From NCBI GenBank assembly GCA_017648105.1, contig JAGCJH010000037.1, positions 1 to 46,090 on the forward strand: 46,090 bases of DNA. Direction: 5' to 3'. Position 1 is the stretch's first letter, and the number at the start of each line of letters is the position of its first letter. The translations under genes and the position numbers were made by a program. The DNA comes from Tidjanibacter sp. (lineage in GTDB: Bacteria; Bacteroidota; Bacteroidia; Bacteroidales; Rikenellaceae). This document shows, piece after piece, positions 10,635 to 45,403 of this stretch. Below the pieces are notes generated by a model. The model had not been told where the DNA came from and searched no databases. It saw only the letters and a list, made by a program, of their open reading frames with translations.

Positions 10635-12296
10635 ATGCTACAAGAGAACTTAATTAGGATCTATGAGCAGAGTTTTCGTGATAACCGTGAACTCCCCGCA
10701 TTGACCGACTATTTTAAGAAAGAGACCTTCTCGTACTACGAAATGGCAAAGGAGATCGCCAAACTCCATATGCTCTTTGAGCAGTGCGGTGTTAAGAGAG
10801 GCGATAAGATTGCTCTGATTGGTCGCAACAACCCCCGATGGGTCATCACCTACATTGCGACTATCACCTACGGTGCGATTATTGTCCCCATCTTGCAGGA
10901 CTTCAACCCCAACGATATCAACCACATTATCAATCACTCGGAGTCTAAACTCCTCTTCCTCGGCGATGCCTACTGGGATGTGATTGATGAGGATAGGGTG
11001 CTTGGCATTGAGGCTGCATTCTCGCTCACAGATTACCGCTGTATCTTTGAGCGTGAGGGCGACAAAGTGACCTCTTTCCAGAAAAATATTGTCAAACACT
11101 ACCGCACACGCTACCCACGAGGCTTCTCGGCAGATGATATCAAATATCCCGAGGTGGGCAACGATGAGGTCTGCGTTATCTCCTACACTTCGGGCTCTAC
11201 GGGCTTCTCGAAGGGTGTGATGCTGACGGTTAATAACCTTACGATGCAGCTTGCGTATGTGTTGCCCAAGAGGTACCACTTCCGAGGCTCTCGTGTGCTC
11301 TGCTTCTTGCCCCTCGCACATGTGTTTGGCTGTGCTATTGATATGCTCTGTTCGCTTGGTGCAGGTACGCACGTGACTCTGCTTGGTAAGATACCCTCGC
11401 CCAAGATTCTTGTGGAGGCTCTCGCAGAGGTGCGCCCCAATGTCATTTGCTCCGTGCCTATGATTATTGAGAAACTTGTCAAGAAGCAGATATTCCCAAT
11501 GATTGGTAGTGGTCTGATTAAGACTGCACTCCAAATCCCCTTGATTGACAATGTTGTCTATTCCTCCATCCGCAAGAAACTTGTGGCAACGATGGGAGGC
11601 GAGTTCTTGGAGTTTGTGGTTGGTGGTGCTGCGCTCAACCCCGAGGTTGAGGAGTTCCTCCATCGCATAAAATTCCCCATCACTGTGGGCTATGGTATGA
11701 CCGAGTGCGGTCCTCTGATTAGCCACCGCCTCTATACTGACGGTTATGTGCCCACTTCGGCAGGTCGTGTGCTCACCGACTTCTGTGAGTGCCGCATCCT
11801 CTCGCCCGATCCCGCACATATCCCCGGAGAGATTCTCATTCGTGGCGAGCAGGTGATGAAGGGATACTACAAGAACCCCGAGGCAACCGCCGCTGTGCTC
11901 GACGAGGACGGTTGGCTCCACACGGGCGATATGGGTACCGTCGATGCCGATATGAACATCTTTTTGCGTGGTCGCAGTAAGACTATGATTCTTATGTCGG
12001 GTGGTCAGAATGTCTATCCCGAGGAGATTGAGGCTAAGCTCAACAACCTCGCCTATGTCTTGGAGAGCCTTGTGGTTGCAAGGGAGAATAAACTTGTGGC
12101 GCTCGTTGTGCCCGACTATGAACAGCTCGACGCTGCGGGCATCCCCCACAGCAAGCTCGAAGAGATTATGAACGAAACACTCAAAGAGCTCAATACCCTT
12201 GTGGCATCCTACGAGAAGGTTGCCTACATCGAGTTGCGCCCCACGGAGTTTGAGAAGACACCCAAGAAGTCCATTAAGCGCTTCCTTTACAGGTAA
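10635..12296 (+). CDS. AMP-binding long-chain fatty acid-CoA ligase family protein
   Basis: A 553-residue member of the acyl-adenylate-forming (ANL) family, which activates a carboxylate with ATP and joins it to CoA. Motifs in order are the P-loop YTSGSTGFSKGVML (about 184-197), GYGMTECGPLIS (about 352-363), LHTGDMG with the ribose-binding aspartate, and SGGQNVYPEEIEAKL near the C-terminal hinge. The C-terminal KTPKKSIKRFLY contains the usual catalytic lysine region. The length and N-terminal helix resemble long-chain acyl-CoA synthetases (FadD-like). Substrate chain length cannot be told. It follows plsY, consistent with lipid metabolism, but has its own strong promoter and leader. Structured element copy A starts at its stop codon. 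Confidence 0.9.
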   Translation: MLQENLIRIYEQSFRDNRELPALTDYFKKETFSYYEMAKEIAKLHMLFEQCGVKRGDKIALIGRNNPRWVITYIATITYGAIIVPILQDFNPNDINHIINHSESKLLFLGDAYWDVIDEDRVLGIEAAFSLTDYRCIFEREGDKVTSFQKNIVKHYRTRYPRGFSADDIKYPEVGNDEVCVISYTSGSTGFSKGVMLTVNNLTMQLAYVLPKRYHFRGSRVLCFLPLAHVFGCAIDMLCSLGAGTHVTLLGKIPSPKILVEALAEVRPNVICSVPMIIEKLVKKQIFPMIGSGLIKTALQIPLIDNVVYSSIRKKLVATMGGEFLEFVVGGAALNPEVEEFLHRIKFPITVGYGMTECGPLISHRLYTDGYVPTSAGRVLTDFCECRILSPDPAHIPGEILIRGEQVMKGYYKNPEATAAVLDEDGWLHTGDMGTVDADMNIFLRGRSKTMILMSGGQNVYPEEIEAKLNNLAYVLESLVVARENKLVALVVPDYEQLDAAGIPHSKLEEIMNETLKELNTLVASYEKVAYIELRPTEFEKTPKKSIKRFLYR

Positions 12297-12420
12297 AAAC
12301 GCACATAGTCGGCGATTAGGTCGTCGCACTGCGATAAATCCCCTCCTCATTTGCGATTAGCAAGCTACGGAGGGGATTTTCTTGTGCGCCTAAAACTCGC
12401 TCAATTCTCTGCGCTTTTTC
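12295..12420 (+). repeat. Structured intergenic element, copy A
   Basis: Starts within the stop codon of the ligase gene. Main hairpin arms: 12336-12346 with 12369-12379, perfect 11 bp (AAATCCCCTCC type). The upper stem TTGC/GCAA sits above the internal loop TCA. The 5' tag ACTGCGATAAA and 3' tag TTCTTGTGCGCC are shared with copies B1 and B2. Outer arms (AAAACGCA near 12297, TGCGCTTTT near 12410) are imperfect. Confidence 0.8.
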
Positions 12421-12461: not shown

Positions 12462-12497
12462 AAAAAAACCACCGACCAGTTGTTGGTCGGTGGTTTT
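12462..12497. terminator. Terminator of rpsU
   Basis: AACCACCGACCA/TGGTCGGTGGTT stem with an A-run on its left giving U7 on the minus strand. It lies 22 bases past the rpsU stop codon. Confidence 0.85.
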
Positions 12498-12833: not shown

Positions 12834-14111
12834 CTACTCTATCTCGACAGAGGTAAACTGGAAGTATGGAGCAAGACGATTTCTCTCCTCCACAGTGAAT
12901 ATGTCATCCTTCAAAAATTCTTCCAGCCCTTTCCAGCCTCCTTTCGTTTGTCGTGTTTTGAGTATTTTTCTTAACCTCGGGGTTGTTATGTACGGATGTA
13001 CAGCCAACTCTTTCGGGGGTGCAAAGTTAATATCAATTTTTCTAATTTTGCAACTATCACACCAAAATTCTTCCTCGAAGAGCGCATAATTCTCTTTTGT
13101 AACCACTTTGAGGTCTAAGAGTTGGGCTACCGAGGCATAGCCTCCGAGTCGTTGGCGGTAGCGGAGAATGTCGCTTGCTGTGCGTGCGCCAATGCCCTCG
13201 ACGGCTATGAGTGTGAGCGAATCGGCACTATTGAGATCTATACGCTTGCGTGCGACGGGAGAGAGTGTAATGTAGGGTTTCATCTGCTCCCACAGGGCAC
13301 TATCTATGAGATAACAATCCCTCCATTCGAGTTCGCTGCGAAATCCGCCCCTACGCTCACGATACTCAACGAGAGCCTCTGCTTGGCGTGCCGAGAAACA
13401 TCCGAGTTCGTAGAAACCTTCGGCTGTGAGGGTGTTGGGGTCGAAGGGGATGTTGCGGAAGGCTCGCTTGTTGCGAGGCAAACTCTTTTCGACGATGGGA
13501 ATTGTGATGTAGGGCTTCATCTGGGCGAAGAGTGCGCTGTCGATGAGGTAACAGTCGGCGAAGTCGAGCACCGAACGGAAACCACCATTGCGCTCACGAT
13601 ACTCAACAAGAGCCTCTGCTTGGCGTGCCGAGAAGCATCCGAGATTGTAGAATCCTTCGGCTGTGAGTGCATTGGGGTCAAAGGGTATGTTTCGGAACTT
13701 GCGCTCGGACTTGTTGATGGTTGCGGTGGGGTATGTGCGGGACTTTATGCGATACTCCTCGCCGATTGTGATGTGGGGTTTCAAGAGGGCATAGAGCGAG
13801 TCGCTGATGCCGTAGATTATCGCCACATCCTCGGCAATGGCAAAGGTGCGCCCACCCTCACGATATTTCACAATTCCACGAGAGGCATATTTATCCACGC
13901 CCATCGCTCGTAACTCCTCATAGGTCACAGTGTTGGGGTCGAATGGGCGGAGTGATAGTGTTGCGCCTTCGGAGACCTCAATGGGTGCCTCTGTGGAGTC
14001 ACTTTTACCCCTCTTTGTGACCGCCCCAACGAGAATCCAGAGCGAGATGACTACCACTGGTAAGAGTAGCACCACGCCCCTTATCTCCTGCTTTGTGAAA
14101 ATGTGTGCCAT
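12834..14111 (-). CDS. Membrane-anchored helix-hairpin-helix (ComEA-like) protein with duplicated unit
   Basis: A 425-residue protein with one N-terminal membrane segment (about 12-30, VVLLLPVVVISLWILVGAV), then at least four to five helix-hairpin-helix-type units. Units at about 139-204 and 218-283 are nearly identical (FRNIPFDPN, TAEGFY, LGCFSARQAEALVEYRER, then CYLIDSAL, QMKPYIT), a recent-looking 79-residue tandem duplication. The unit at about 288-345 (IDLNSADSLTLIAVEGIGAR) is the classic ComEA-type HhH. The C-terminal unit ends the protein. Such domains bind DNA without sequence specificity. The protein may help DNA uptake or envelope-associated DNA handling, but that is inference; comF is elsewhere in the window. 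Confidence 0.8.
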   Translation of the reverse strand: MAHIFTKQEIRGVVLLLPVVVISLWILVGAVTKRGKSDSTEAPIEVSEGATLSLRPFDPNTVTYEELRAMGVDKYASRGIVKYREGGRTFAIAEDVAIIYGISDSLYALLKPHITIGEEYRIKSRTYPTATINKSERKFRNIPFDPNALTAEGFYNLGCFSARQAEALVEYRERNGGFRSVLDFADCYLIDSALFAQMKPYITIPIVEKSLPRNKRAFRNIPFDPNTLTAEGFYELGCFSARQAEALVEYRERRGGFRSELEWRDCYLIDSALWEQMKPYITLSPVARKRIDLNSADSLTLIAVEGIGARTASDILRYRQRLGGYASVAQLLDLKVVTKENYALFEEEFWCDSCKIRKIDINFAPPKELAVHPYITTPRLRKILKTRQTKGGWKGLEEFLKDDIFTVEERNRLAPYFQFTSVEIE

Positions 14112-16117: not shown

Positions 16118-18268
16118 ATGGAGAACGGAATTATGAGAGCACAATTTACAGATATGAAATTCGCTGGCGCAACCGAGGGTTGCTGCCAGAATGGTCAGTG
16201 CGCAGCCCCCGAGAAAGAGTGGATGACCGCTGAGCAGATTCCCGTAAAGGGTCTTTATAGTGCCGAGGATTTGGAGGGTATGGAGCACCTTAACTACGCA
16301 GCAGGTGTGGCTCCCTTCCTTCGTGGTCCTTACAGCACAATGTATGTGATGCGTCCTTGGACCATCCGCCAGTATGCAGGTTTCTCGACCGCAGAGGAGA
16401 GCAACGCTTTCTACCGTCGTAACTTGGCTTCTGGTCAGAAAGGTCTTTCGGTTGCATTTGACCTTGCAACTCACCGAGGCTACGACGCAGACCACCCCAG
16501 GGTTGTTGGCGATGTAGGTAAGGCAGGTGTGAGCATCTGCTCGGTTGAGGATATGAAGGTTTTGTTCGATGGTATTCCATTGAACCAGATGTCGGTGTCG
16601 ATGACTATGAACGGTGCGGTACTTCCCGTCTTGGCGTTCTACATCGTTGCAGGTTTGGAGCAGGGTTGCACCCTCGACCAGCTCGCTGGTACCATCCAGA
16701 ACGACATCTTGAAAGAGTTTATGGTGCGTAATACCTACATCTACCCACCAGAATTCTCGATGCGCATTATTGCTGACATCTTCGAGTACACCTCCAAGAA
16801 TATGCCTAAGTTCAACTCGATTTCTATTTCGGGTTACCATATGCAGGAGGCGGGTGCTACCGCAGATATCGAGTTGGCATACACCCTTGCAGATGGTTTG
16901 GAGTACCTCCGTGCAGGCGTGAACGCAGGTATGAGCATCGACCAGTTTGCTCCCCGCTTGTCGTTCTTCTGGGCTATCGGTATGAACCACTTTATGGAGA
17001 TTGCCAAGATGAGGGCTGCTCGTCTGTTGTGGGCAAAGATCGTAAAACAGTTCAACCCCAAGAACCCCAAATCGCTCGCACTCCGTACCCACTCGCAGAC
17101 TTCGGGTTGGTCGCTCACCGAGCAGGATCCTTTCAACAATGTGGCTCGTACCGCTATCGAGGCTATGGGTGCAGCGCTTGGTCACACCCAGTCGCTCCAC
17201 ACCAATGCTCTTGATGAGGCTATTGCACTTCCTACCGACTTCTCGGCTCGTATTGCTCGTAACACCCAGATTTACATTCAGGAGGAGACCAATGTTTGCC
17301 GTTCGGTTGACCCCTGGGCTGGTAGCTACTATGTAGAGAGCCTTACCAATGAGATTGCACACAAGGCTTGGGAGCACATTCAGGAGATTGAGAAACTTGG
17401 CGGTATGGCTAAGGCTATCGAGACCGGTCTTCCCAAGATGCGTATTGAGGAGGCTTCGGCTCGCAAACAGGCTTGGATTGACTCGGGCGACGAGGTTATC
17501 GTTGGTTTGAACCGCTACCGTTTGGAGAAAGAGGCTCCCATCGACATCTTGGCTGTGGATAACACCGCAGTGCGTGAGAGTCAGGTTAAACGCCTCAAAG
17601 AGCTCCGTGCAAACCGTGACGAGGCGGCAGTTCAGGCTGCACTCGCTGCAATTACCGAGGCTGTGAAGACCAAGAGTGGCAACCTCTTGGAGCTTGCAGT
17701 TGAGGCTGCTAAGGTGCGTGCAACCCTCGGCGAGATTTCGGATGCTTGCGAGGTTGTTGTTGGTCGCTACAAAGCAGTTATTCGTTCCATTTCAGGTGTA
17801 TATTCGAGCGCTATGAAGAATGATGCAGATTTCGCTAAGGCGAAAGATATGGTGGACGAGTTCGCAAAACGCGAGGGTCGTCAGCCCCGTATTATGATTG
17901 CTAAATTGGGTCAGGACGGTCACGACCGTGGTGCAAAAGTTGTTGCTACCGGTTATGCCGACCTCGGCTTCGATGTGGATATGGGTCCCTTGTTCCAGAC
18001 TCCCGAGGAGGCAGCAAAACAGGCTGTGGAGAACGATGTACATGTTGTTGGTGTATCGTCGCTCGCAGCAGGTCACCTCACCCTCGTTCCTCAGATTATC
18101 GCTGAGTTGAAGAAGCTCGGTCGTGAGGATATCGTGGTTGTAGTGGGTGGTGTTATCCCTGCTCAGGACTACGAGGAACTCTATCAGGATGGCGCTGCTG
18201 CAATCTTCGGTCGTGGTACCCCCGTGGCTACTGCGGCTCAGAAGATTATGGAGATTCTCTCCGAGTAA
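16118..18268 (+). CDS. mutB: Methylmalonyl-CoA mutase large (catalytic) subunit
   Basis: Catalytic B12-dependent subunit, 716 residues from ATG 16118. An in-frame ATG at 16133 ([10 protein letters not shown]) is an alternative start that matches some family members. The substrate-binding barrel contains [40 protein letters not shown] and [16 protein letters not shown]. The C-terminal cobalamin domain shows [13 protein letters not shown] with the cobalt ligand H602, then the GVSSLAAGH and VVVGGVIP loops. It is cotranscribed with mutA. The stop codon overlaps the outer arm of structured element B1, whose long stem ends in a T-run and may terminate the operon. Confidence 0.97.
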
Positions 18269-18394
18269 AAAAACGCATATAAGCGGCGTCTTTGGCGTTG
18301 CACTGCGATAAACCACCTCCTCATTTACGAGAGTAAACTGCGGAGGTGGTTTTCTTGTGCGCCTAAAATCCCCTCGCTTATATGCGTTTTTTTT
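18267..18394 (+). repeat. Structured intergenic element, copy B1 (best preserved)
   Basis: Outer arms 18267-18285 and 18375-18394 form a perfect stem of about 19 bp (AAACGCATATAAGCG with CGCTTATATGCGTTT), ending in T8. Inside, arms 18311-18320 and 18342-18351 (AACCACCTCC/GGAGGTGGTT) are perfect. Above the internal loop TCA/CTGC the upper stem is TTTAC GAGA GTAAA. The outer arm begins inside the mutB stop codon. It probably doubles as a terminator. Confidence 0.85.
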
Positions 18395-18517
18395 AAGATG
18401 CTTTGGGGCGTCTTTGGCGTTGCATTGCGACAAATCCCCTCCCTATTTACGCTTAGTAAACTGCGGAGGTGGTTTTCTTGTGCGCCTAAAATCCCCTCGC
18501 TTATCTGCGTTTTTTAA
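18395..18517 (+). repeat. Structured intergenic element, copy B2 (tandem)
   Basis: Direct tandem copy at a 122-base offset from B1. Arms 18432-18442 and 18465-18475 have two mismatches. The upper stem is TTTAC GCTTA GTAAA. It shares the 3' tag and the terminal CGCTTATCTGCGTTTTTT. A further partial unit (GATGCTTTGGGGCGT) follows at 18519-18533. Confidence 0.8.
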
Positions 18518-18665
18518 GATGCTTTGGGGCGTTCTTTTGGAATGTACCTATTTATATATAATATAGGTTATGTCGAAAACAACTCTCAACTTACCATAAG
18601 CGAAACTTATGGTGGGATTGAAAAATATCATCGAGAGAAAGAGTATCAATTCCCGAAAATTGCAC

Positions 18666-18721: not shown

Positions 18722-19252
18722 ATGAAAAAGAACATTAGCGACCGTCTTGTAGCGGCTATCAACGATCAGATCAATGCCGAGCTTTGGTCGGCATATCTCT
18801 ACCTCTCGATGTCTATGGATCAGGAGGCTAAGGGTAATAAAGGTTTTGCAAACTGGTTCTTCATTCAGTTCCAGGAGGAGCAGGATCACGCACGCATCTT
18901 TATGAATATGCTCAACTCTCGTGGTGCGGAGGTTAAACTCCAACCCATCGCAGAGGTGCAGACCGAGTGGGCAACCCCCCTCGCAGCGTGGGAGAAAACT
19001 TTGGAGCACGAGCAGGTTGTTACTGCTCGCATCAACGCCCTGATGGCTATTGCCAAAGAGGAGCGTGACTACGCATCGGAGAGCTTCCTCCAATGGTTTG
19101 TAGATGAGCAGATTGAGGAGGAGGAGAATGCTCGTGATATTATCGACATCTTGGAGAAGATTGGCGACAATAAGTACGGTCTTTACGAGTACGATAAGGA
19201 GTTGGGCGCACGAGTTTATAGCGTTCCCTCGCCCCTCGCAACCGCTGAGTAG
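18722..19252 (+). CDS. ftnA: Ferritin
   Basis: Iron-storage cage protein that oxidises Fe(II) and stores mineralised iron in the cytoplasm. The 176 residues form a four-helix bundle. The ferroxidase residues match FtnA numbering plus three: E20 (NDQINAELWS), E53 and H56 (QEEQDHARIF), E97 (LEHEQ) and Q130 (FVDEQIEEE). The non-haem bacterial ferritin call is firm; there is no sign of a bacterioferritin haem methionine. It is monocistronic with its own promoter box, and structured element copy F follows. A role in oxygen and iron stress is usual for anaerobes; regulation is not visible beyond the upstream palindrome. Confidence 0.95.
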   Translation: MKKNISDRLVAAINDQINAELWSAYLYLSMSMDQEAKGNKGFANWFFIQFQEEQDHARIFMNMLNSRGAEVKLQPIAEVQTEWATPLAAWEKTLEHEQVVTARINALMAIAKEERDYASESFLQWFVDEQIEEEENARDIIDILEKIGDNKYGLYEYDKELGARVYSVPSPLATAE

Positions 19253-19255
19253 TGA

Positions 19256-19350
19256 GCGTGCCTTGTGGGTGCTTTTGCACCAAAATTTAGAGAGCGAGTC
19301 CTCACCTACATTCAAGTAGGCTGCGGACTCGCTCCTGCTTTTGGCACAAA
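19256..19350 (+). repeat. Structured intergenic element, copy F (divergent)
   Basis: Starts four bases past the ferritin stop. Hairpin 1 GGTGC TTTT GCACC (19267-19281). Hairpin 2 lower stem GAGCGAGTCC/GGACTCGCTC, upper stem CCTAC/GTAGG, internal loop TCA/CTGC retained. A short outer pair GTGCC (19258-19262) and GGCAC (19343-19347) closes the element. Confidence 0.7.
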
Positions 19351-19390
19351 AATTCCACCACAACCCCCACTTGCTTCTGTTCTCCAAACA

Positions 19391-23040: not shown

Positions 23041-23160
23041 TAAGAGCGTCTTACGGGCGATTTTAGTGCTGTGTTTTTGATTTTTACTCCTCATTTCCTC
23101 CGAATAAACTGCGGAGCAAAATCAAAACCAAGACCTGAACTCGCCTTGCAACCTGCCCCG
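23041..23160 (+). repeat. Structured intergenic element, copy E (degenerate)
   Basis: Main hairpin arms TTTTGATTTTTACTCC (near 23076) and GGAGCAAAATCAAAA (near 23113) stay complementary apart from one offset. The conserved TCATTT and AAACTGC loop sides are present. The outer pair GGCGA/TCGCC (near 23056 and 23141) is short. Unlike the other copies it does not follow a plus-strand stop codon. Confidence 0.65.
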
Positions 23161-24387: not shown

Positions 24388-24696
24388 CCTGCGGGGTGCT
24401 ACCACTCGCCCCCTAAAAACTGCCATTCATCCTTCAAAATTGCAATTATTAAAAAAATTTAATAATTCTCTAAATAATATATTGGTAAGTTTGTAAAAAA
24501 GTATTACATTTGTGCGTTATTTTGGCATTTTGTGCCAAGATGGCGCAGAGAAAAAGAAATAATAAACTTATCAAAACACAAAAAATATCAAAATCTTGGT
24601 TGGGCAGTTGTCCCGCTGATGCGGATAAGAGCTTAGGTTAAAACAGGTTAGGTGGCTCGGCGTTACGGACAATGTTCGACAATCAAACAAACAATT
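24388..24696 (+). other. Intergenic region and long leader of the glycogen locus
   Basis: 309 bases. After hemW there is no obvious terminator. A promoter lies at 24482-24512, followed by a leader of about 180 bases with hairpins TTGGCA/TGCCAA (24522-24538), GGG/CCC around 24602-24614 and CCGC/GCGG (24613-24624). I do not recognise a known riboswitch. Confidence 0.5.
24482..24512 (+). promoter_or_regulatory. Promoter of the glycogen locus
   Basis: TTG (24482-24484), 20-base spacer, -7 box TACATTTG (24505-24512). Confidence 0.7.
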
Positions 24697-27600
24697 ATGA
24701 AAAACGAAACAGTACAGAAACCAGATTTCTTATTTGAGGTTAGTTGGGAGGTCTGCAACAAGGTGGGCGGTATTCACACCGTTTTGTCCACCAAAGCGGC
24801 AACTATCGCTCGTGAGTTGGGCGATAAGTATATCCTCATCGGTCCCGACATCAACCGTGAGGGTGCAAATCCCGAATTTATCGAGGATTCCAATATGCTC
24901 CGTGAGTGGAAGCAGATGCTCTACTCGCAGGGTTATCGTGTAAAGATTGGTCGTTGGAATGTGGAGGGCGAGCCCGTGGCTATTCTCGTGGATTTCTCGT
25001 CGCTCATCAGCAAGAAAGACGACATCTTGAAGTTCCTTTGGGAGAACTATCAGGTAGATAGCATCAGTGGTCAGTGGGACTACATCGAGCCCGTAATCTT
25101 CGGCTATGCAGCAGGTAAGGTTATTGAGAGCTATGTGAGCAACTTCTGCTCCTCGACCGACCGCACCGTTGCACACTTCCACGAGTGGATGACTGTGAGT
25201 GGTGGTCTTTACCTCCGTTCCTCGTCGCCCTATGTGGCTACTGTCTTCACTTCGCACGCAACCGTTATGGGTCGCTGCATCGCAAGCAATGGTCTTCCCC
25301 TTTACAGCGGTCTGGGCTCGTTCAATGCAGACGACTATGCACGCCAGTTCAATGTTGTGGCTAAACACTCGCTCGAAAAAGTTGCAGCTCGCAATCACGA
25401 CGCATTCTGCTCGGTGAGCCGCATCTCGGCAAAGGAGTGCAAATATCTTCTCGGCACCGAGGTTGATGTTGTTACCCCTAATGGTATCAACGACATCTTT
25501 ATGTGGAACAGCGAGGAGGCTGCAAGCCGTCGTAAGGAGGCTCGCAAGGCTGTGATTTCGGTAGCAGAGGCTTGCTACGGCAAGAAGTTTGCAAAGGATC
25601 CCCTGGTTGTTGGTACCGCAGGTCGCTATGAGTTCAAGAACAAGGGTATTGATGTGTTTATTGAGGCGCTCAAACAGCTTGCAGTGCGTTTGCCCGAGGG
25701 TCGTGAGGTGTTGGCTTTGATCTCCGTACCCGCAGCTAACGAGGGTCCCCGTCGTGACTTGATGGCAAACCTCGCAAACAAGAAGAACGCAATCGATCCC
25801 GAGCAGCCCCGCTTCACTACACACTATCTCACCAACCAAGAGAACGACCCCATCGTGAAGAGTATCTCGGGTAGCGTGCTTGATAGTGCAGACTCGAAGG
25901 TTAAGGTGCTCTTCGTTCCCACCTACTTGCAGGGTACCGATGGCATCTTGTCGCAGAACTACTATGAGTGCTTGACTGGTATGGACTTGACCGTCTTTGC
26001 GTCCTACTATGAGCCTTGGGGTTACACTCCCCTCGAAAGTGTTGCTTTCTCGATTCCTACCATCACCACCTCACTTGCAGGTTTCGGTAAATGGGTGGAT
26101 GACCTCGTAGGTGGTCACAAGGGTGTTTCGGTTATCACTCGTAACGACTCCAACGACGCCTTCGTTGCAGACTCCATCGCAGAGACCATTGAGCGCTTCG
26201 TTGCAATGGGTAAGAAGGAGTATGAGGAGGCTCGCAAGTCGGCATACGAGATTTCCCGCACCGCACTCTGGGAGAAATTTGTAGATAACTACGCTGAGGC
26301 TTATGGCGTAGCACTCGATAGGGTAATTACCCGCACCAACAAAGTTGTATATGATGGTGGCAATGCGACCGAGCAGGTGAACTTCGTTCGCCAGCAGCTC
26401 GTAAGCAGCCAGCCCTCGTGGAGCCGCCTGATGGTTGAGAAGAGCCTTCCCGAGAGCCTCCGTGCGCTCGAAATCCTCTCGAAGAACCTCTGGTGGAGCT
26501 GGACTCTTGGCGCACACGAGCTCTTTGAGTCTATCGACCCCGAGTTGTGGGCAGCTACCTCCAAGAACCCCATCGCACTTCTCGACCGCTTGACATATTC
26601 GAGGGTTAAGGAGTTGGAGCAGGATAAGAAATTCCTCGCTAAGCTCAAAGATGTATATGCTCAGTATTGCGCATATATGGCGAAGAAGGCTGATGCAAAG
26701 GGTCCCAAGATTGCATATTTCAGTATGGAGTATGGCTTGCACTCGTCGCTCAAAATCTACTCGGGTGGTCTTGGCATCCTTGCGGGCGACTACATCAAGG
26801 AGGCTTCCGATAAGAATGTGCCTATGGCAGCAGTAGGTTTGCTCTATCGCTATGGCTACTTCACACAGAAACTCTCCGCACAGGGTGCTCAGGAGGCTGC
26901 ATACGAGGCGCAGAACTTCCAGAAACTCCCCATTTCGCCTGCTCGTGATGAGATGGGCAACTGGTGCTCGATTCAGGTGGCACTTCCTGGTCGTACCGTG
27001 ACTGCTCGCATCTGGAAATGCGAGGTTGGTCGCACCGACCTCTACCTCTTGGATACCGACCACGAGCTCAACATTGAGGAGGATAGGAGCATCACCCACC
27101 ACCTCTATGGCGGTGATTTGGAGAATCGTCTGAAACAGGAGCTCTTGCTTGGCGTTGGTGGTATCCGTGCTTTGAACGCACTCGGCATCAAGTCCGACAT
27201 CTACCACTGCAATGAGGGTCACGCTGCGTTCATCGGTTTGGAGCGTATCCACAACTGCGTGAAGGGTAAGAACCTCTCGTTCAGTGAGGCTTTGGAGGTT
27301 GTACGCTCGTCGTCGCTCTACACCACCCACACTCCCGTGCCCGCAGGTCACGATGCATTCCCCGAGCAGATGATTCGTCAGTATATGAGCCACTACCCCG
27401 AGCGCTTGGGTATCACTTGGGAGCAGTTCATCAACCTCGGTAAGACTCGTCCCAACGACCCCACCGAGAAGTTCTCGATGAGCTTCCTTGCTTGCAACCT
27501 CTCGCAGGAGGTTCATGGCGTGAGCTGGTTGCACGGTGAGGTGAGCAAGGAGATTCTTGGCGATATGTGGCCCGGCTACTTCAAGGATGAGTTGCACATT

Positions 27601-28950
27601 GGCTATGTGACCAATGGTGTTCACTTCCCCACTTGGACAGCATCCGTACTCCGCAGACTCTATGCTAAATACTTCGCAGAGGGCTTCTCGCAGGAGCAGT
27701 ACAATATCCCCGCTTGGCAGAAGGTAAACGATATTCCCGACAAAGAACTTTGGGATGCTCGTATGATGCTCAAACAGCGCCTCTTCAAGACTGTTGGTAA
27801 GATTATGAACGACACCACTAAGTCGGCTGTCGCTTCGCCCCGCCAGATGGTTGCAGTGAAGGAGAACTTCAAACCCGATGTGCTGACTATCGGTTTTGCT
27901 CGTCGTTTCGCAACCTACAAGCGTGCGCACCTTCTCTTCACCAACCTCGAAAGGTTGTCGGCACTCGTTAATAACCCCGAGCGCCCCGTACAGTTTGTAT
28001 TTGCTGGTAAGGCTCACCCCCAAGATATCCCTGGTCAGGATTTGATCAAACGCATCGTTGCTGTTTCGCAGATGCCCGAGTTCGCTGGTAAGATTCTCTT
28101 CTTGCCCAACTACGATATGGACATCTCTCGCAAGATGGTACAGGGTGTGGATATCTGGCTCAACACTCCTACCCGTCCTTTGGAGGCTTCGGGTACCAGT
28201 GGCGAGAAGGCGGTTATGAACGGCGTTATGCAGTTCTCGGTGCTCGACGGCTGGTGGGTTGAGGGTTACAAAGAGGGCGCAGGCTGGATGTTGCCTATGG
28301 AGCGCACCTATGCAGACCAGAACCACCAGAACGAACTCGATGCAGAGATGATCTACCGCACTATTGAGGAGGAGATCGTACCTCTCTACTACAACCGTGA
28401 TGCAGATGGTATGCCCCGTGGTTGGATTAAGAGTATGAAGAGCTGTATCGCAGATATCGCTTCCAACTTCACCACCAACCGTATGCTCACCGACTACGAG
28501 GAGCGCTTCTATGCTCCCCTCTATGCTCGCCACCGTGAGGTTATCAAGAGCGACTACTTGATGGCTCGTGAGATGGCTGCTTGGAAACGCAAAGTGAGTG
28601 CAGCGTGGGATAAAGTGAGGGTACTCGACACCAAACAGGCAGATATGACCAAACAGGCAATGGTTGTTGGTGGCAAGTATCGCTTCGAGGCAACCCTCGA
28701 CATTGATGTCTTGAAGCCCGAGGATATTGGCGTAGAGTTGATTCTCGCAAGCCAGATTGAGAGTGGTCGTGATGTTAAGATTTCCAAGAAAGTGGAACTT
28801 GATGTTGTGAGCGTTGATGGCTCGAAGGTTGTTTATGCAGTGGATGCATTGATGGAGCACACAGGCTCCTATGATGCGGCACTTAGGGTATATCCCAAGA
28901 ACGCTAAGTTGCCCCACCGTATGGACTTCGCACTCGTGAAGTGGGCGTAA
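24697..28950 (+). CDS. Bifunctional glycogen synthase (GT3-like)-alpha-glucan phosphorylase (GT35) fusion
   Basis: One 1,417-residue frame from ATG 24697 (MKNETVQKPDFLFEVSWEVC). Residues 1 to about 555 resemble GT3 eukaryote-type glycogen synthase: NKVGGIHTVLSTKA (21-34), VAHFHEWM, FTSHATVMGR, VTPNGIND and the catalytic-site EPWGYTPLE (439-447). A linker near 555-575 leads to the DUF3417 domain (SLRALEILSKNLWWSWTLGA, about 587-606). A glucan phosphorylase follows (YFSMEYGLHSSLKIYSGGLG, HCNEGHAAF, ARRFATYKRAHL). The PLP motif EASGTSGEKAVMNGVM has the Schiff-base lysine at K1171. The protein therefore joins chain elongation from nucleotide-sugar to phosphorolysis of the same polymer. Both halves keep their key residues, so neither looks dead. 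It heads the glycogen locus. Confidence 0.88.
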   Translation: MKNETVQKPDFLFEVSWEVCNKVGGIHTVLSTKAATIARELGDKYILIGPDINREGANPEFIEDSNMLREWKQMLYSQGYRVKIGRWNVEGEPVAILVDFSSLISKKDDILKFLWENYQVDSISGQWDYIEPVIFGYAAGKVIESYVSNFCSSTDRTVAHFHEWMTVSGGLYLRSSSPYVATVFTSHATVMGRCIASNGLPLYSGLGSFNADDYARQFNVVAKHSLEKVAARNHDAFCSVSRISAKECKYLLGTEVDVVTPNGINDIFMWNSEEAASRRKEARKAVISVAEACYGKKFAKDPLVVGTAGRYEFKNKGIDVFIEALKQLAVRLPEGREVLALISVPAANEGPRRDLMANLANKKNAIDPEQPRFTTHYLTNQENDPIVKSISGSVLDSADSKVKVLFVPTYLQGTDGILSQNYYECLTGMDLTVFASYYEPWGYTPLESVAFSIPTITTSLAGFGKWVDDLVGGHKGVSVITRNDSNDAFVADSIAETIERFVAMGKKEYEEARKSAYEISRTALWEKFVDNYAEAYGVALDRVITRTNKVVYDGGNATEQVNFVRQQLVSSQPSWSRLMVEKSLPESLRALEILSKNLWWSWTLGAHELFESIDPELWAATSKNPIALLDRLTYSRVKELEQDKKFLAKLKDVYAQYCAYMAKKADAKGPKIAYFSMEYGLHSSLKIYSGGLGILAGDYIKEASDKNVPMAAVGLLYRYGYFTQKLSAQGAQEAAYEAQNFQKLPISPARDEMGNWCSIQVALPGRTVTARIWKCEVGRTDLYLLDTDHELNIEEDRSITHHLYGGDLENRLKQELLLGVGGIRALNALGIKSDIYHCNEGHAAFIGLERIHNCVKGKNLSFSEALEVVRSSSLYTTHTPVPAGHDAFPEQMIRQYMSHYPERLGITWEQFINLGKTRPNDPTEKFSMSFLACNLSQEVHGVSWLHGEVSKEILGDMWPGYFKDELHIGYVTNGVHFPTWTASVLRRLYAKYFAEGFSQEQYNIPAWQKVNDIPDKELWDARMMLKQRLFKTVGKIMNDTTKSAVASPRQMVAVKENFKPDVLTIGFARRFATYKRAHLLFTNLERLSALVNNPERPVQFVFAGKAHPQDIPGQDLIKRIVAVSQMPEFAGKILFLPNYDMDISRKMVQGVDIWLNTPTRPLEASGTSGEKAVMNGVMQFSVLDGWWVEGYKEGAGWMLPMERTYADQNHQNELDAEMIYRTIEEEIVPLYYNRDADGMPRGWIKSMKSCIADIASNFTTNRMLTDYEERFYAPLYARHREVIKSDYLMAREMAAWKRKVSAAWDKVRVLDTKQADMTKQAMVVGGKYRFEATLDIDVLKPEDIGVELILASQIESGRDVKISKKVELDVVSVDGSKVVYAVDALMEHTGSYDAALRVYPKNAKLPHRMDFALVKWA

Positions 28951-29074
28951 AAATTTGTCTGGCGGGTGCTTTTTGCACCTGCCTTGAACAAAACTCCCTC
29001 ATTTGCCACAGAGTAAACTGCGGAGTCTTGTTCTGCGAGCAGTCACTAAAAACTCCTCGCCATACAGATTTTTT
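28949..29074 (+). repeat. Structured intergenic element, copy D
   Basis: Begins at the stop codon of the fusion gene. Outer arms near 28950-28967 and 29056-29074 pair with about three mismatches and end in T6. Hairpin 1 is GGTGC TTTTT GCACC (28965-28979). Hairpin 2 is GAACAAAACTCC/GGAGTCTTGTTC with one G-U (28985-28996 with 29022-29033), upper stem TTTGC/GTAAA. The internal loop TCA/CTGC is conserved. Confidence 0.8.
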
Positions 29075-40132: not shown

Positions 40133-41152
40133 ATGAAAGACATTAAATGGCAAGAGCTTGGTTTTAGCTATGTTAAAACTGACTACAACACTCGTTGTGT
40201 ATGGAAAGATGGTGCGTGGGGCAAGATTGAGGTAAGCGATAGCGAGTATCTCCCCATCCATATGGCTGCCACCTGCCTCCACTATGGTCAGGAGGTATTC
40301 GAGGGTATGAAGGCTTTCCGTGGCGTTGATGGCAAGGTGCGCTTCTTCCGCTTGGAGGAGAACGCTAAGCGTATGCAGCGCTCGGGCGAGTATCTGCGTA
40401 TGCAGGTGCCCAGCCTCGAACTCTTCGAGGAGATGTGCACAAAGGCTGTGGAGGCAAATGCTGAGTACATTCCTCCCTATGGCACTGGTGCATCGCTCTA
40501 CTTGCGTCCTTTGCTCATTGGTACTGGCGCACAAGTGGGTGTTAAGGAGTCTACCGAATACACCTTTGTGGTGTTTGTGACTCCCGTAGGTCCCTACTTC
40601 AAGGAGGGCTTCAAGCCTATCACTGTAACCCTCGAGCGTCTTTATGACCGAGCAGCACCTCACGGTACTGGTCACACTAAGGTGGGTGGTAACTATGCGG
40701 CTTCTATCGGCTCGGGCTCCCGTGCGCACGAGGCTGGCTTTGCAAACTGCCTCTACCTCGACCCCAAAGAGAAAAAGTATATCGATGAGTTTGGTGCAGC
40801 CAACTTCTTTGGTATCAAGGAGGGTAAATATGTGACTCCCGATTCGTCGTCGGTGCTCCCCTCGATTACCAATATGTCGCTCCGCACTTTGGCAGAGGAT
40901 TTGGGCTTGACCGTTGAGAATCGCCCCATCGCTGTTGAGGAGCTTGCAACCTTTGAGGAGGCTGGTGCTTGCGGTACCGCAGCTGTTATCTCGCCCGTGG
41001 GTCGCATCTACGATCCCCTCACCGAGAAATACTATGAGTATGGCTCCGAGGCAGGTCCTGTGAGTGTTAAACTCTACAACCTCTTGCAGGATATTCAGTA
41101 TGGTCGTGTGGAGGATACACACGGTTGGACTAAGGTTATTGAAAACCTCTAA
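40133..41152 (+). CDS. ilvE: Branched-chain amino acid aminotransferase
   Basis: PLP enzyme that transaminates leucine, isoleucine and valine with 2-oxoglutarate. The 339 residues are fold-type IV. The Schiff-base lysine is K183 in GHTKVGGNYAAS. EVFEGMKAFRG, FFRLEENAKRM, YLRPLLIGTGAQVGV and the phosphate-binding CGTAAVISPVG segment are all present. This is the longer, eukaryote-type BCAT form common in Bacteroidetes. A family-2 repeat and an A-rich leader precede it. Structured element copy C starts at its stop codon and probably terminates transcription. Confidence 0.96.
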   Translation: MKDIKWQELGFSYVKTDYNTRCVWKDGAWGKIEVSDSEYLPIHMAATCLHYGQEVFEGMKAFRGVDGKVRFFRLEENAKRMQRSGEYLRMQVPSLELFEEMCTKAVEANAEYIPPYGTGASLYLRPLLIGTGAQVGVKESTEYTFVVFVTPVGPYFKEGFKPITVTLERLYDRAAPHGTGHTKVGGNYAASIGSGSRAHEAGFANCLYLDPKEKKYIDEFGAANFFGIKEGKYVTPDSSSVLPSITNMSLRTLAEDLGLTVENRPIAVEELATFEEAGACGTAAVISPVGRIYDPLTEKYYEYGSEAGPVSVKLYNLLQDIQYGRVEDTHGWTKVIENL

Positions 41153-41277
41153 AAAACACATATAACGAGCGTCTGCTTCGTTATACTGCGATAAGCGGAG
41201 TTCCTCATTTGCGCTGAGCAAACTGCTGACTCCGCTTTCTTGTATACCTTGCATTCATCTCATTCTATGAGTTTTTT
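41151..41277 (+). repeat. Structured intergenic element, copy C
   Basis: Outer arms 41151-41169 and 41259-41277 match at 16 of 19 positions and end in T6. Hairpin 1 is ATAACGA/TCGTTAT (41162-41168 with 41178-41184). Hairpin 2 is AAGCGGAGT/ACTCCGCTT (41193-41201 with 41229-41237), upper stem TTTGC GCTGA GCAAA. The 5' tag ACTGCGATAA and 3' tag TTTCTTGT are conserved. Confidence 0.8.
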
Positions 41278-42838: not shown

Positions 42839-43996
42839 TTAGAGGATATTCATCAGCGAGTATGTCAAAAATCCGAGATAGTTGCCCACGGCATAGCCTA
42901 CCAAACCGATGGTTACACCCACCACAATGATATCCTTATTCTTCATCGAAGCGGCAATCATAGGCACAAAGATGGGGGAGTTGATGAGGGTGTTGGAGGT
43001 GATAACAGCCGTATCGCCATCCACCTTGAAAAGTTTTGCGCCCAGCAGGGTGAGCAGGAATGAGCCGAAGACTACAATAACTTGGAATAGTATGATGTAG
43101 AGTGCGCCCTCGTAGTTCATCGTGCGGAAGTTTGCCATCGAGGCAACAACCACAGAGAAGATGTAGATGATATACATACCCGCATCGTAGCTCTTGTCCC
43201 ACGACTTGACCTCCTTCCAGAGTGAGAATATGAGCGCAAGGGTAGTGAGTGTGAGAATCATCACAACCGTAAAGATATTCTCATCGTAGCGCTTTGCGTA
43301 GGTTGCAACACCAAAAGCGGCAGCAACAATCACGAGCGTGAGGAGCGTAACTTTGACGAGCTGTTTCACAGACTCCTTCTTGTGGAAATCCTTATAGGGA
43401 TTTTTCTCGGCGTACTCGGCGAGGTTTACCTCTTTGTCGGTAGCATAGATGCCCCTACCGAGGAACTTGCGAGCCTGTTTGATACCTACCGACATCAGCA
43501 TCACAAGATATAAGAAGCAGATGATCATATCAAACGAGTTGATAAGGATGAAGGTCTCGTTTTTCATATCGAGCATAACCTTCAAGGCTGCAAGGTTGGG
43601 CGTACCACCCGTACACTTACCCATAATAGCACCACCAATAATTGCGCCCTCTTCGCCCAAGCCGCCTCGGAGTGCGAAGAAGCCTACGAAAGAGGCTATT
43701 GTCACAGCCACGATACCTACAATGGTAATCTTCAATGAGGTCTTCACCGAAAACTTCTTGAAGTCGCAACTGTAAAGCATCATTGGCAGAGCCAAAGGAA
43801 TTGCAATGGAGGAAATGGTGTTTTGCAAACCTGCGCAGTCGGCAGGAATAAGATTGAGGTTGGCAATGATAATGCCGAGGAAGTAGAGAATCAGAACTGG
43901 ACCAATTTTGCCCAAAATCTTCCACCTGTTGCACGCCCACAGTACCGCCGCAGGCGAGAGGAGATAGAATAGCACAAGTGCAATTTTACCTAACAT
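42839..43996 (-). CDS. DUF819 family membrane protein (tandem copy 2)
   Basis: A 385-residue polytopic membrane protein beginning MLGKIALVLFYLLSPAAVLW. About nine to eleven hydrophobic spans are visible. Family-like segments are IPLALPMMLYSCDFKKF, GGAIMGKCTGGTPNLAALKV and the C-terminal SPIFVPMIAASMKNKDI. DUF819 proteins (YjcL-like) are predicted transporters with no firm substrate. The neighbour at 44213 is a paralogue with the same order of motifs. The duplication is old: the midsections differ and the conserved half-repeat reads GKCTGGTPN here against GQYSGGAGN there. It has its own -7 box and a leader of about 105 bases with a hairpin. Confidence 0.88.
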   Translation of the reverse strand: MLGKIALVLFYLLSPAAVLWACNRWKILGKIGPVLILYFLGIIIANLNLIPADCAGLQNTISSIAIPLALPMMLYSCDFKKFSVKTSLKITIVGIVAVTIASFVGFFALRGGLGEEGAIIGGAIMGKCTGGTPNLAALKVMLDMKNETFILINSFDMIICFLYLVMLMSVGIKQARKFLGRGIYATDKEVNLAEYAEKNPYKDFHKKESVKQLVKVTLLTLVIVAAAFGVATYAKRYDENIFTVVMILTLTTLALIFSLWKEVKSWDKSYDAGMYIIYIFSVVVASMANFRTMNYEGALYIILFQVIVVFGSFLLTLLGAKLFKVDGDTAVITSNTLINSPIFVPMIAASMKNKDIIVVGVTIGLVGYAVGNYLGFLTYSLMNIL

Positions 43997-44212: not shown

Positions 44213-45403
44213 TTAGAGTATCAAGAGGAGTTGGTACACGAGATAGCCGAGGTAGTTGCCGACAGCATAACCCGCCAGACCATTTGTGATACCGACCATA
44301 ATAGCCTCCTTATTCTTCATTGTTGCAGCAATCATAGGCACGCAGATGGGCGAATTGACGAGGGTGTCGGATGTAATAACCGCACTATCGGCATCCACCT
44401 TGAAGGGACGAGCCAAGAGAACGCCCAGGGTGAGCGAGCCAAAGACGATGATGGTCTGATAGACGAGCACCCAAAGACCGAGCTCCCAGTCGAGTTGCGA
44501 GAGGTCGGCAAGCATAGCCATCGCAAAGCAGAAGATGTAGATGAGGTACATACCCGCATCGAAGCTCTTATCCCACGAGCGCACACCCTTGATGTTGGTC
44601 AGCAGAAGGCTGATGGTTGTGAGTACGAGGATTAGTGCCACCATCGAAAAGTCGCCACCGAGCAGATCGAACATTACGGTGCCCTCCTTGAAGAGGTTGC
44701 TCGTCAGGAGCGACACGACAGCCACGCCTGCGGCAGTGAAAAAGACCTTCACAAGCTGGATGATGCTCTTCTTCTTGCCGAAATCTTTGTAGGGGTTGTT
44801 GTTTACATACTCCTCCGTATTGATCATATCGTTATACTCCTTGATATTCTTGCCGTGTACGATGCGACGAGCAATCGTCACACCACCACCCATCAGGAAC
44901 ATAAGATAGAAGAACGATACTACGAGGTTGCAGGTACTCACGAGTGCGAACTTCTCCTCGGAGAGTCCCTTGTCGCCAAGCATCATATTCACGGCTGCGA
45001 AGTTGCCAGCACCGCCCGAGTATTGACCCGAGAGGGTTGCACCAATCGTTGCACCATCCACTCCCAGCTTATTTCCCAACAAGCAGTAGCCAGCAATGAC
45101 CATTGCCACTGTTGAGAATATACCGATGATGAATGCCTTTGCCGTAACACCCGCCTTGAAGTTCTTGAAGTTGCAACCGAAGAGCATCATTGGGATTGCC
45201 AAAGGAATCATTACATCTTGTAAAGTTTTCTGTATGCCGTGACAATCGGCAGGCACGATGTGGAGGTTTGCAACCACCACGCCCAAGATGTAGAGTGTGA
45301 GTACGGGACCAACCTTGTCGAGCACTTTGCTCTTGCGGCACGCCCAAAGCACCCCTGCGGGCGCCAAAAGATAGAATAAAACGAGTAGTAGTTTTGCAAT
45401 CAT
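44213..45403 (-). CDS. DUF819 family membrane protein (tandem copy 1)
   Basis: A 396-residue polytopic membrane protein from ATG 45403 (MIAKLLLVLFYLLAPAGVLW). Longer upstream in-frame starts run back through the promoter and are rejected. Family-like segments are IPLAIPMMLFGCNFKNFKA, ATLSGQYSGGAGNFAAVNMM and the C-terminal SPICVPMIAATMKNKEAI, ending in VGNYLGYLVYQLLLIL. It is the paralogue of the gene at 42839. The two are separated by a terminator and each has its own promoter, so they can be regulated independently. Substrate is unknown. Its promoter carries TTTCAA microrepeats like those before miaB. Confidence 0.88.
   Translation of the reverse strand: MIAKLLLVLFYLLAPAGVLWACRKSKVLDKVGPVLTLYILGVVVANLHIVPADCHGIQKTLQDVMIPLAIPMMLFGCNFKNFKAGVTAKAFIIGIFSTVAMVIAGYCLLGNKLGVDGATIGATLSGQYSGGAGNFAAVNMMLGDKGLSEEKFALVSTCNLVVSFFYLMFLMGGGVTIARRIVHGKNIKEYNDMINTEEYVNNNPYKDFGKKKSIIQLVKVFFTAAGVAVVSLLTSNLFKEGTVMFDLLGGDFSMVALILVLTTISLLLTNIKGVRSWDKSFDAGMYLIYIFCFAMAMLADLSQLDWELGLWVLVYQTIIVFGSLTLGVLLARPFKVDADSAVITSDTLVNSPICVPMIAATMKNKEAIMVGITNGLAGYAVGNYLGYLVYQLLLIL

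What the first reader, a model, noticed from the sequence alone, without database searches (positions are those of the whole stretch)
18267..18517. Recurrent structured intergenic element whose stems covary between copies
Seven copies (12295, 18267, 18395, 19256, 23041, 28949, 41151) share a hairpin whose lower stem differs in sequence yet stays complementary: AAATCCCCTCC, AACCACCTCC, AAGCGGAGT, GAACAAAACTCC and GAGCGAGTCC each pair with their own partner. The upper stem also covaries (TTTAC/GTAAA, TTTGC/GCAAA, CCTAC/GTAGG). An asymmetric internal loop (TCA opposite CTGC) stays nearly constant. Compensatory change at two stems with a fixed loop is the mark of a selected structure, either an RNA motif or a protein-recognised DNA hairpin. 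I do not recognise a described family. REP sequences mobilised by RAYT transposases also have hairpins with conserved bulges and are the nearest known concept.
Basis: partly seen in the sequence, partly recalled or inferred. Interest (0 to 1): 0.85.

Follow-up and report, generated by a model that had tools for sequence, protein, structure and literature searches.

The report
Covarying hairpin repeats behind stop codons
A 125-letter repeated DNA hairpin sits directly behind the stop codons of dozens of genes in a gut bacterium, keeps its shape while its sequence changes, and has relatives in many other Bacteroidota and, more distantly, in E. coli, so it looks like an overlooked mobile or regulatory element.

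Summary
Six of the seven window copies are ~125-nt elements; 23041 is not supported. One unbranched hairpin fits them: outer stem with A-tract/T-tract ends, a 3-bp helix, stem 3, lower stem, a T·C mismatch and bulged C, upper stem. On 94 distinct copies 94.7% of cells pair and 37 of 44 pairs change on both sides; of 11 column pairs beating a tree-aware null, 9 lie in the first modelled helices and 2 form a new helix. The host is Tidjanibacter (Rikenellaceae, herbivore-gut MAGs). The element occurs in 14 of 22 congeneric genomes and lies in sense at the stop codon in 85 of 95 tested copies (antisense control 2 of 90). At mutB it appears inserted between stop codon and native terminator. Relatives occur in 42 of 392 other genomes of the order; in one end-class 15 of 19 have a 4-bp target duplication, as MITEs do. 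Rfam sX9 and an E. coli repeat share the core. RAYT transposase is absent from all 15 element-bearing genomes searched. Best reading: a MITE-like dispersed element read by shape, resident in Tidjanibacter 3' UTRs. Enzyme and function remain unknown.

The parts
12294..12419 (+). Element copy 1 (lower stem AATCCCCTCC/GGAGGGGATT), starting at the stop codon of the acyl-CoA ligase-like gene 10635-12296
   Evidence: (E 4.6e-27)
18268..18392 (+). Element copy 2 (lower stem AACCACCTCC), directly after the mutB stop codon; best model match in the own genome
   Evidence: E 2.4e-32; z -8.8
18393..18515 (+). Element copy 3, tandem duplicate of copy 2 without the usual 5' outer arm; lower stem mismatched
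   Evidence: D2: 98% over 61 nt; E 1.5e-16
19251..19375 (+). Divergent (type B) copy at the stop codon of the ferritin-like gene 18722-19252; lower stem GAGCGAGTCC, upper stem CCTAC/GTAGG
   Evidence: (E 8e-7); not listed
28948..29074 (+). Divergent copy at the stop codon of the alpha-glucan phosphorylase-like gene 24652-28950; lower stem AACAAAACTCC
   Evidence: (E 3.7e-7)
41151..41277 (+). Element copy at the ilvE stop codon; lower stem AAGCGGAGTTCC
   Evidence: (E 1.3e-17)
23041..23160 (+).
   Evidence: (D4); no model match; z -2.5
12471..12487 (+). Ordinary terminator-like hairpin downstream of copy 1

Best explanation
The element is a ~125-nt MITE-like dispersed repeat that is kept because of the hairpin it folds into. 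Shown: one unbranched hairpin whose stems covary while the apical T·C mismatch and bulged C and much of the internal loops stay constant; a position in Tidjanibacter on the sense strand at the stop codon of unrelated genes; relatives in other families of the order with inverted ends and, in one end-class, 4-bp target duplications. Inferred: the family spread as a non-autonomous mobile element, with the folded strand (ssDNA or RNA) as the recognised form, because end sequences differ between lineages but stay self-complementary while the core is constant. In Tidjanibacter the copies now seem to be stable residents of mRNA 3' ends that exchange whole hairpin modules by recombination. They probably act there as a 3' structural element that the terminating ribosome meets at once (effect on translation, 3' processing or termination). 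The mobilising enzyme and the molecular function are not shown.
For: Structure; independent set A6. Dispersal: 14 of 22 congeneric relatives have the element, with 20-75 matches each (reverse-strand echoes included); 8 have none, six of these at least 98% complete. Insertion: readable mutB 3' regions in 19 genomes show a full element directly behind the stop in 3, a partial one in 2, none in 14; element-bearing G005 has, behind the element, the same sequence and a native terminator that element-free G022 has directly behind its stop (read by eye). ilvE: element in 4 of 22 regions printed. Position: stop codon end within -12..+20 of the element start in 85 of 95 sense tests, 2 of 90 antisense; 76 of 85 stops are TAA. 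MITE traits: 15 of 19 elements of one end-class from other families have an exact 4-bp flanking repeat, 0-1 of 19 at shifted boundaries, 14% in mispaired flanks. Homology across families: R3, built without Tidjanibacter, finds the own genome at E 1.3e-19. Module exchange: in sister species G013/G018 all 27 testable element rows (13 sites, counted from both species) have an element in the partner, several with a different inner hairpin.
Against: No recognisable target duplication in 98 Tidjanibacter copies. No autonomous partner seen: the rows listed (for four of eight genomes; list cut) hold no inward pair of ends 0.5-3 kb apart, and the Tidjanibacter end type was not tested. No gain or loss of sites between the two sister species. 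Constant loops could partly reflect recent common descent within Tidjanibacter, though the core is shared with distant families. The sense-strand G·U excess that RNA selection predicts is modest (74 against 47 one-sided events, average of 20 reconstructions), and G·U is rare in the lower stem. In other families the stop-codon rule is loose: 10 of 39 sense, 7 of 39 antisense, in a wider window. Termination was not shown: the simple scans list none of the elements.
Confidence: 0.6

Rival explanations
1. Domesticated 3'-end element: an ancestral insertion turned into a host transcription terminator or ribosome-stalling/3'-protection hairpin, duplicated and kept by selection for that role and no longer mobile.
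For: Strict sense-strand position at the stop codon; A-tract and T-tract at the outer stem; GC-rich lower stem followed by TTTTCTTG in many Tidjanibacter copies; all 13 testable sites occupied in both sister species. In E. coli, REPs within 15 nt of a stop codon are reported to down-regulate translation (PMC12306157, passages).
Against: Ordinary terminators remain downstream at some sites (4 of 24 own copies by a strict rule, 0 after shuffling). Most relatives printed from other families have AU-rich lower stems that would hardly terminate. The element is absent from 8 of 22 congeners.
Confidence: 0.25
2. Covariation without selection: palindromes kept perfect by hairpin-templated correction and by gene conversion among copies.
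For: In the lower stem two-sided changes far exceed one-sided G·U or A·C changes (56 against 8, with 5 others); sister species differ by whole hairpin modules; 39 lower-stem haplotypes in 94 rows, nearly all self-complementary.
Against: Correction should also erase the T·C mismatch and bulged C, which are kept (T in 87 of 94, bulged C in 91 of 94; 38 and 37 of 38 in other families). Several separate helices covary, also in an independent set from other families. A U·G pair is conserved (38 of 38 rows in A6, 74 of 94 in A5).
Confidence: 0.12
3. REP elements spread by a REP-associated tyrosine transposase.
For: Dispersed extragenic hairpins with a conserved bulge, some in tandem.
Against: PF01797 in 0 of 15 element-bearing genomes; the only hit among 22 is in an element-free genome (the control finds it in E. 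coli). Size and 4-bp target duplications in relatives differ from the REP pattern as I recall it.
Confidence: 0.03

Closest known systems
Bacterial MITEs (ERIC, Correia/NEMIS, RUP; QMITE2 of Coxiella, in 3' UTRs)
   Same: ~100-200 nt, no protein coding, inverted ends, stable stem-loop transcript, AT-rich 4-bp target duplication in relatives (MITE traits as in PMC2229807 and PMC10969869, passages)
   Different: End sequences differ between lineages but stay complementary while the core is constant; in Tidjanibacter nearly always at a stop codon and without target duplication
Rfam sX9 (RF02228, Xanthomonas sRNA)
   Same: Its first ~39 positions align with the apical hairpin and 3' half of the core in relatives (E 0.0047 and 0.15, 32.4 and 25.7 bits; 40.9 bits in Comamonas)
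   Different: All matches are below the gathering score of 44; Rfam types it as an sRNA gene, not as part of a 120-nt dispersed hairpin; no match in the window
E. coli ~118-bp intergenic repeat (pheM-pheS, qseE-qseG, after ucpA; possibly the repeat recalled as RSA, name not checked)
   Same: Shares a ~50-nt core (GTGCTC..ATCCTCACGTAC..GTACGCTCCGGTT in several copies); present in 5375 of 5426 E. coli genomes
   Different: Median 3 places per genome with a 56-nt query and 5 with a 131-nt query; different outer arms; only weak matches to R3 (E 0.006 to 0.74)
REP/BIME with RAYT
   Same: Extragenic hairpins with conserved unpaired bases (recalled); in E. coli some lie within 15 nt of stop codons (PMC12306157, passages)
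   Different: No RAYT gene found, longer, variable stems
E. coli BoxC
   Same: Intergenic palindromic repeat, 56 bp in PMC2267715 (passages)
   Different: The consensus CCCTCNCCC..GGGNGAGGG in PMC4666352 (passages) is unrelated in sequence

Membership tests
MITE | Short (<~200 nt), non-coding, many dispersed copies | tested here: met
   35 blastn places in the own genome, partial ones included; 121-127 nt; absence of an ORF judged from length only
MITE | Terminal inverted repeats | tested here: met
   Outer stem of 18 pairs, 90.7% paired in 94 rows; 88.4% in 38 rows from other families
MITE | Target site duplication | tested here: inconclusive
   Met in 15 of 19 elements of one end-class in other families; not seen in 98 Tidjanibacter copies
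MITE | Ends shared with an autonomous insertion sequence in the same genome | tested here: inconclusive
   No inward pair 0.5-3 kb apart in the rows listed (four of eight genomes, list cut); the Tidjanibacter ends were not tested
REP/RAYT | Y1_Tnp (PF01797) gene in the genome | tested here: not met
   0 of 15 element-bearing genomes, several of them incomplete
Intrinsic terminator | GC-rich hairpin directly followed by a U-tract, by the simple rules used | tested here: not met
   0 of 100 elements by my strict rule and none listed; both rules exclude bulged or nested stems
Intrinsic terminator | RNA 3' ends at the element in vivo | not testable with these tools
   No transcriptome data
Rfam sX9 | Score at or above the gathering cut-off of 44 bits | tested here: not met
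   0 matches in the window; 25.7-40.9 bits in relatives
E. coli BoxC | Consensus CCCTCNCCC..GGGNGAGGG | tested here: not met
   Consensus read in PMC4666352; absent from the element by inspection, no pattern search run

The most novel reading that the evidence does not exclude
A previously unnamed superfamily of mobile hairpins, spread over Bacteroidota and reaching Proteobacteria, whose mover recognises the folded shape (constant loops in freely varying, covarying stems) rather than end sequences. In Tidjanibacter it is aimed at, or only tolerated at, stop codons, so that the mobile element becomes the 3' end of dozens of mRNAs.
Probability: 0.25. Interest if true: 0.85.

Novelty: new variant of a known kind. 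Interest (0 to 1): 0.62.

Why it matters
Bacterial MITEs are usually recognised by conserved ends; here the ends drift while structure and core stay, which would mean recognition by shape. A strict stop-codon location would also make this a natural system for asking what a hairpin met by the terminating ribosome does to an mRNA. The link between a Bacteroidales repeat, an Rfam sRNA family of Xanthomonas and a repeat present in nearly every E. coli genome suggests that scattered records describe parts of one element family.

Tried and rejected
REP/RAYT: rejected, no PF01797 in the element-bearing genomes searched. BoxC: my guess from memory for the E. coli copies, rejected after reading the consensus in PMC4666352. 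TRIP1: considered because K-12 has three copies; the loci given in PMC10888264 (passages) differ from those found here. Integron attC: considered from memory, set aside because outer arms vary and the genes looked at are core genes; not tested formally. Three-way junction with a small local hairpin: my first structure, replaced by the nested helix found through covariation. Plain terminators: the strict rules do not fit. Target duplication in Tidjanibacter: searched over many boundaries, none recognisable. Carriage by plasmids or phages: the window element has no match in plasmids and its core pattern 0 in viral contigs; a related-core query gave hits in 12 plasmid-collection records (8 Escherichia, some whole chromosomes by length), 12 viral contigs and 4 phage-collection records. 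The pattern was mis-designed and wasted a search.

Library limits: the statement that the family is undescribed rests in an open-licence library only. The rows without a qualifying ORF (8 of 100) and the 14 G013/G018 rows without an ortholog are left out of the counts as stated. Two reverse-strand or overlapping sets of rows were dropped before counting.

Full report
Observation. The window lies in a 1.53-Mb draft genome, 83% complete. The mutB 3' region was read directly. A blastn search with it gave 35 places in the own genome, partial ones included. From ten own copies I aligned and modelled the element (R1). R1 gives 58 rows at E<=0.1 in the own genome, among them reverse-strand echoes of the palindrome. 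23041 is found in neither.

Organism. An inner pattern matched 21 stretches of named genomes, all Tidjanibacter MAGs from ruminants and other herbivores. The genus belongs to Rikenellaceae, Bacteroidales.

Structure. On 94 distinct rows (96 matches, alignment A5) the first structure has 92.4% paired cells (shuffles 76.7%) and 38 of 45 pairs with two-sided changes. A tree-aware null (FastTree, Fitch parsimony, changes re-placed on branches) left 10 column pairs at E<0.05 with 60 simulations, 9 in the structure, and 11 with 120 simulations, again 9 in the structure. Most other pairs of the structure do not pass this test on their own. The two outside, 29-114 and 30-113, are antiparallel neighbours. 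With 28-115 they form a helix paired in 94-98%, mostly as TTT/AAA, TTC/GAA or TGC/GCA. It replaces the weak local hairpin of my first model (70.2% paired) and raises pairing to 94.7%. The result is one unbranched hairpin. The lower stem has 39 haplotypes among 94 rows, is nearly always Watson-Crick, and shows 56 two-sided against 8 one-sided G·U or A·C events and 5 others. Whole-stem exchange therefore contributes, and covariation counts are not all independent compensations. One-sided events to G·U exceed those to A·C, 74 to 47 (counted on the first structure), a mild sign that the sense strand is the folded one. The mismatch T is kept in 87 of 94 and the bulged C in 91 of 94 rows.

Position. 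In 100 non-overlapping matches from 94 loci the upstream ORF's stop codon ends at -12..+20 of the element start in 85. In 7 it lies 70-145 nt upstream, most of them second copies of tandem pairs, and in 8 no qualifying ORF was found. With a rule on available flank the count is 85 of 95 on the sense side and 2 of 90 on the antisense side. Two modes appear: 0 to +3, where the element's A-run usually completes TAA, and +15, where an in-element TAA or TAG is used. TAA makes up 76 of 85 stops.

Gain and loss. 14 of 22 congeneric relatives have matches, 8 none. At mutB, 19 genomes with a readable 3' region gave 3 with a full element directly behind the stop (G000 in tandem, G005, G014), 2 partial (G019, G021) and 14 without; one of the 14 (G006) shows what looks like an element in the opposite orientation some 350 nt downstream. 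G022 (no element) and G005 (element) share the sequence and a native terminator that follow the site, which indicates an insertion right behind the stop codon; this was read by eye in one pair. At ilvE, 22 of 23 regions were printed, 4 with the element and each with different stems. Between sister species G013 and G018 (about 95% nucleotide identity) the 27 testable element rows, 13 sites counted from both sides, all have an element in the partner; 14 rows had no ortholog in the fetched part. Inner modules and tandem number differ at several sites in the part that was shown. On this time scale sites look stable and contents are exchanged.

Relatives. An order-wide search with R2 found matches at E<=1e-4 in 43 of 393 genomes, own included, in 34 of 206 genera. 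Thirty-nine such elements from other families share the core and fold alike: 86.3% paired against 70.1% in shuffles, with 5 of 5 tree-aware significant pairs in the structure. R3, built from these 39 without Tidjanibacter, finds the own genome at E 1.3e-19 and, phylum-wide, 23 of 395 genomes, own included; many rows from other classes are single weak matches near 1e-5, but in the twelve printed the core reads alike. Nineteen elements of one end-class could be tested for flanking repeats: 15 have an exact 4-bp repeat (TTTA, TAAA and similar), with 0-1 of 19 at shifted boundaries. In these families the stop-codon rule is loose, 10 of 39 sense and 7 of 39 antisense within -25..+20. No autonomous partner showed in the listed rows.

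Beyond Bacteroidota. Rfam sX9 aligns to the core below its cut-off. A core query hit 5375 of 5426 E. coli genomes. Copies lie between pheM and pheS, 60 nt behind the ucpA stop and 21 nt behind the qseE stop. A Comamonas plasmid copy begins at a stop codon and matches R3 over its full length at E 2.8e-4. E. coli copies match R3 only weakly (0.006 to 0.74). Common descent there is likely from the core but less certain than within Bacteroidota.

Mechanism. A MITE-like origin is the best fit to short size, inverted ends, dispersal and 4-bp duplications in relatives. Shape recognition is an inference from drifting but complementary ends and a constant core. In Tidjanibacter the lack of duplications and the position at stop codons are not explained by ordinary transposition. 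Possible reasons are a preference for TA-containing targets that stop codons supply, survival only there, or spread by recombination between 3' ends. An effect on translation is plausible because REPs within 15 nt of stop codons down-regulate translation in E. coli (PMC12306157, passages). Termination is plausible but unproven, and native terminators persist downstream at some sites (4 of 24 by a strict rule).

Papers. Seen as passages only: PMC12306157, PMC10969869, PMC2229807, PMC2267715, PMC10888264, PMC9029176, PMC6337395, PMC10924375, PMC2864571. Abstract, outline and passages: PMC4666352. Others only as search listings.

Noticed in passing
window 18516-18560; L014, L010, L015; L220-L248 downstream of elements: 3' ends of Tidjanibacter genes carry further repeated modules: tandem 3' halves of the element, and tails such as GTCTAACGTC and AAGGGCATTAAGG. 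The 3' UTRs look like zones where repeats accumulate.
   Followed up: partly
L235, L237, L243, L251, L252 and other loci: Many elements lie within 500 nt of contig ends in the fragmented MAGs, so copy numbers are probably underestimates and the repeat may break assemblies.
   Followed up: no
L084 (G013, behind ilvE): In place of the element there is an unusually long hairpin of a different sequence, AAACAGAAAGTAGGGTGTGTC and its complement, soon behind the stop codon.
   Followed up: no
L230 6078-6186 and 7665-7787; L244 5674-5795 and 7268-7390: A further variant family (ATTTTCTGCGTTACGCTCG..AAATCCTCATTTGCG..CTGCGGTTTCTCG) looks intermediate between the typical element and the other Bacteroidales forms.
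   Followed up: no
L276, L277, L293: Longer forms (146-177 nt) carry extra sequence inside the same ends; all three keep a 4-bp flanking repeat, and two of three keep the core by my motif test.
   Followed up: partly
window 13253-13460 and 13490-13697; 42873-43030 and 44247-44404: Direct repeats of 158-208 nt at 77-78% identity inside long ORFs, probably repeated domains or paralogous genes.
   Followed up: no
Rfam RF02228 (sX9): One survey lists sX9 among the most frequent bacterial sRNAs (PMC9029176, passages); the match to this core suggests that many of those hits may be copies of a dispersed hairpin.
   Followed up: partly
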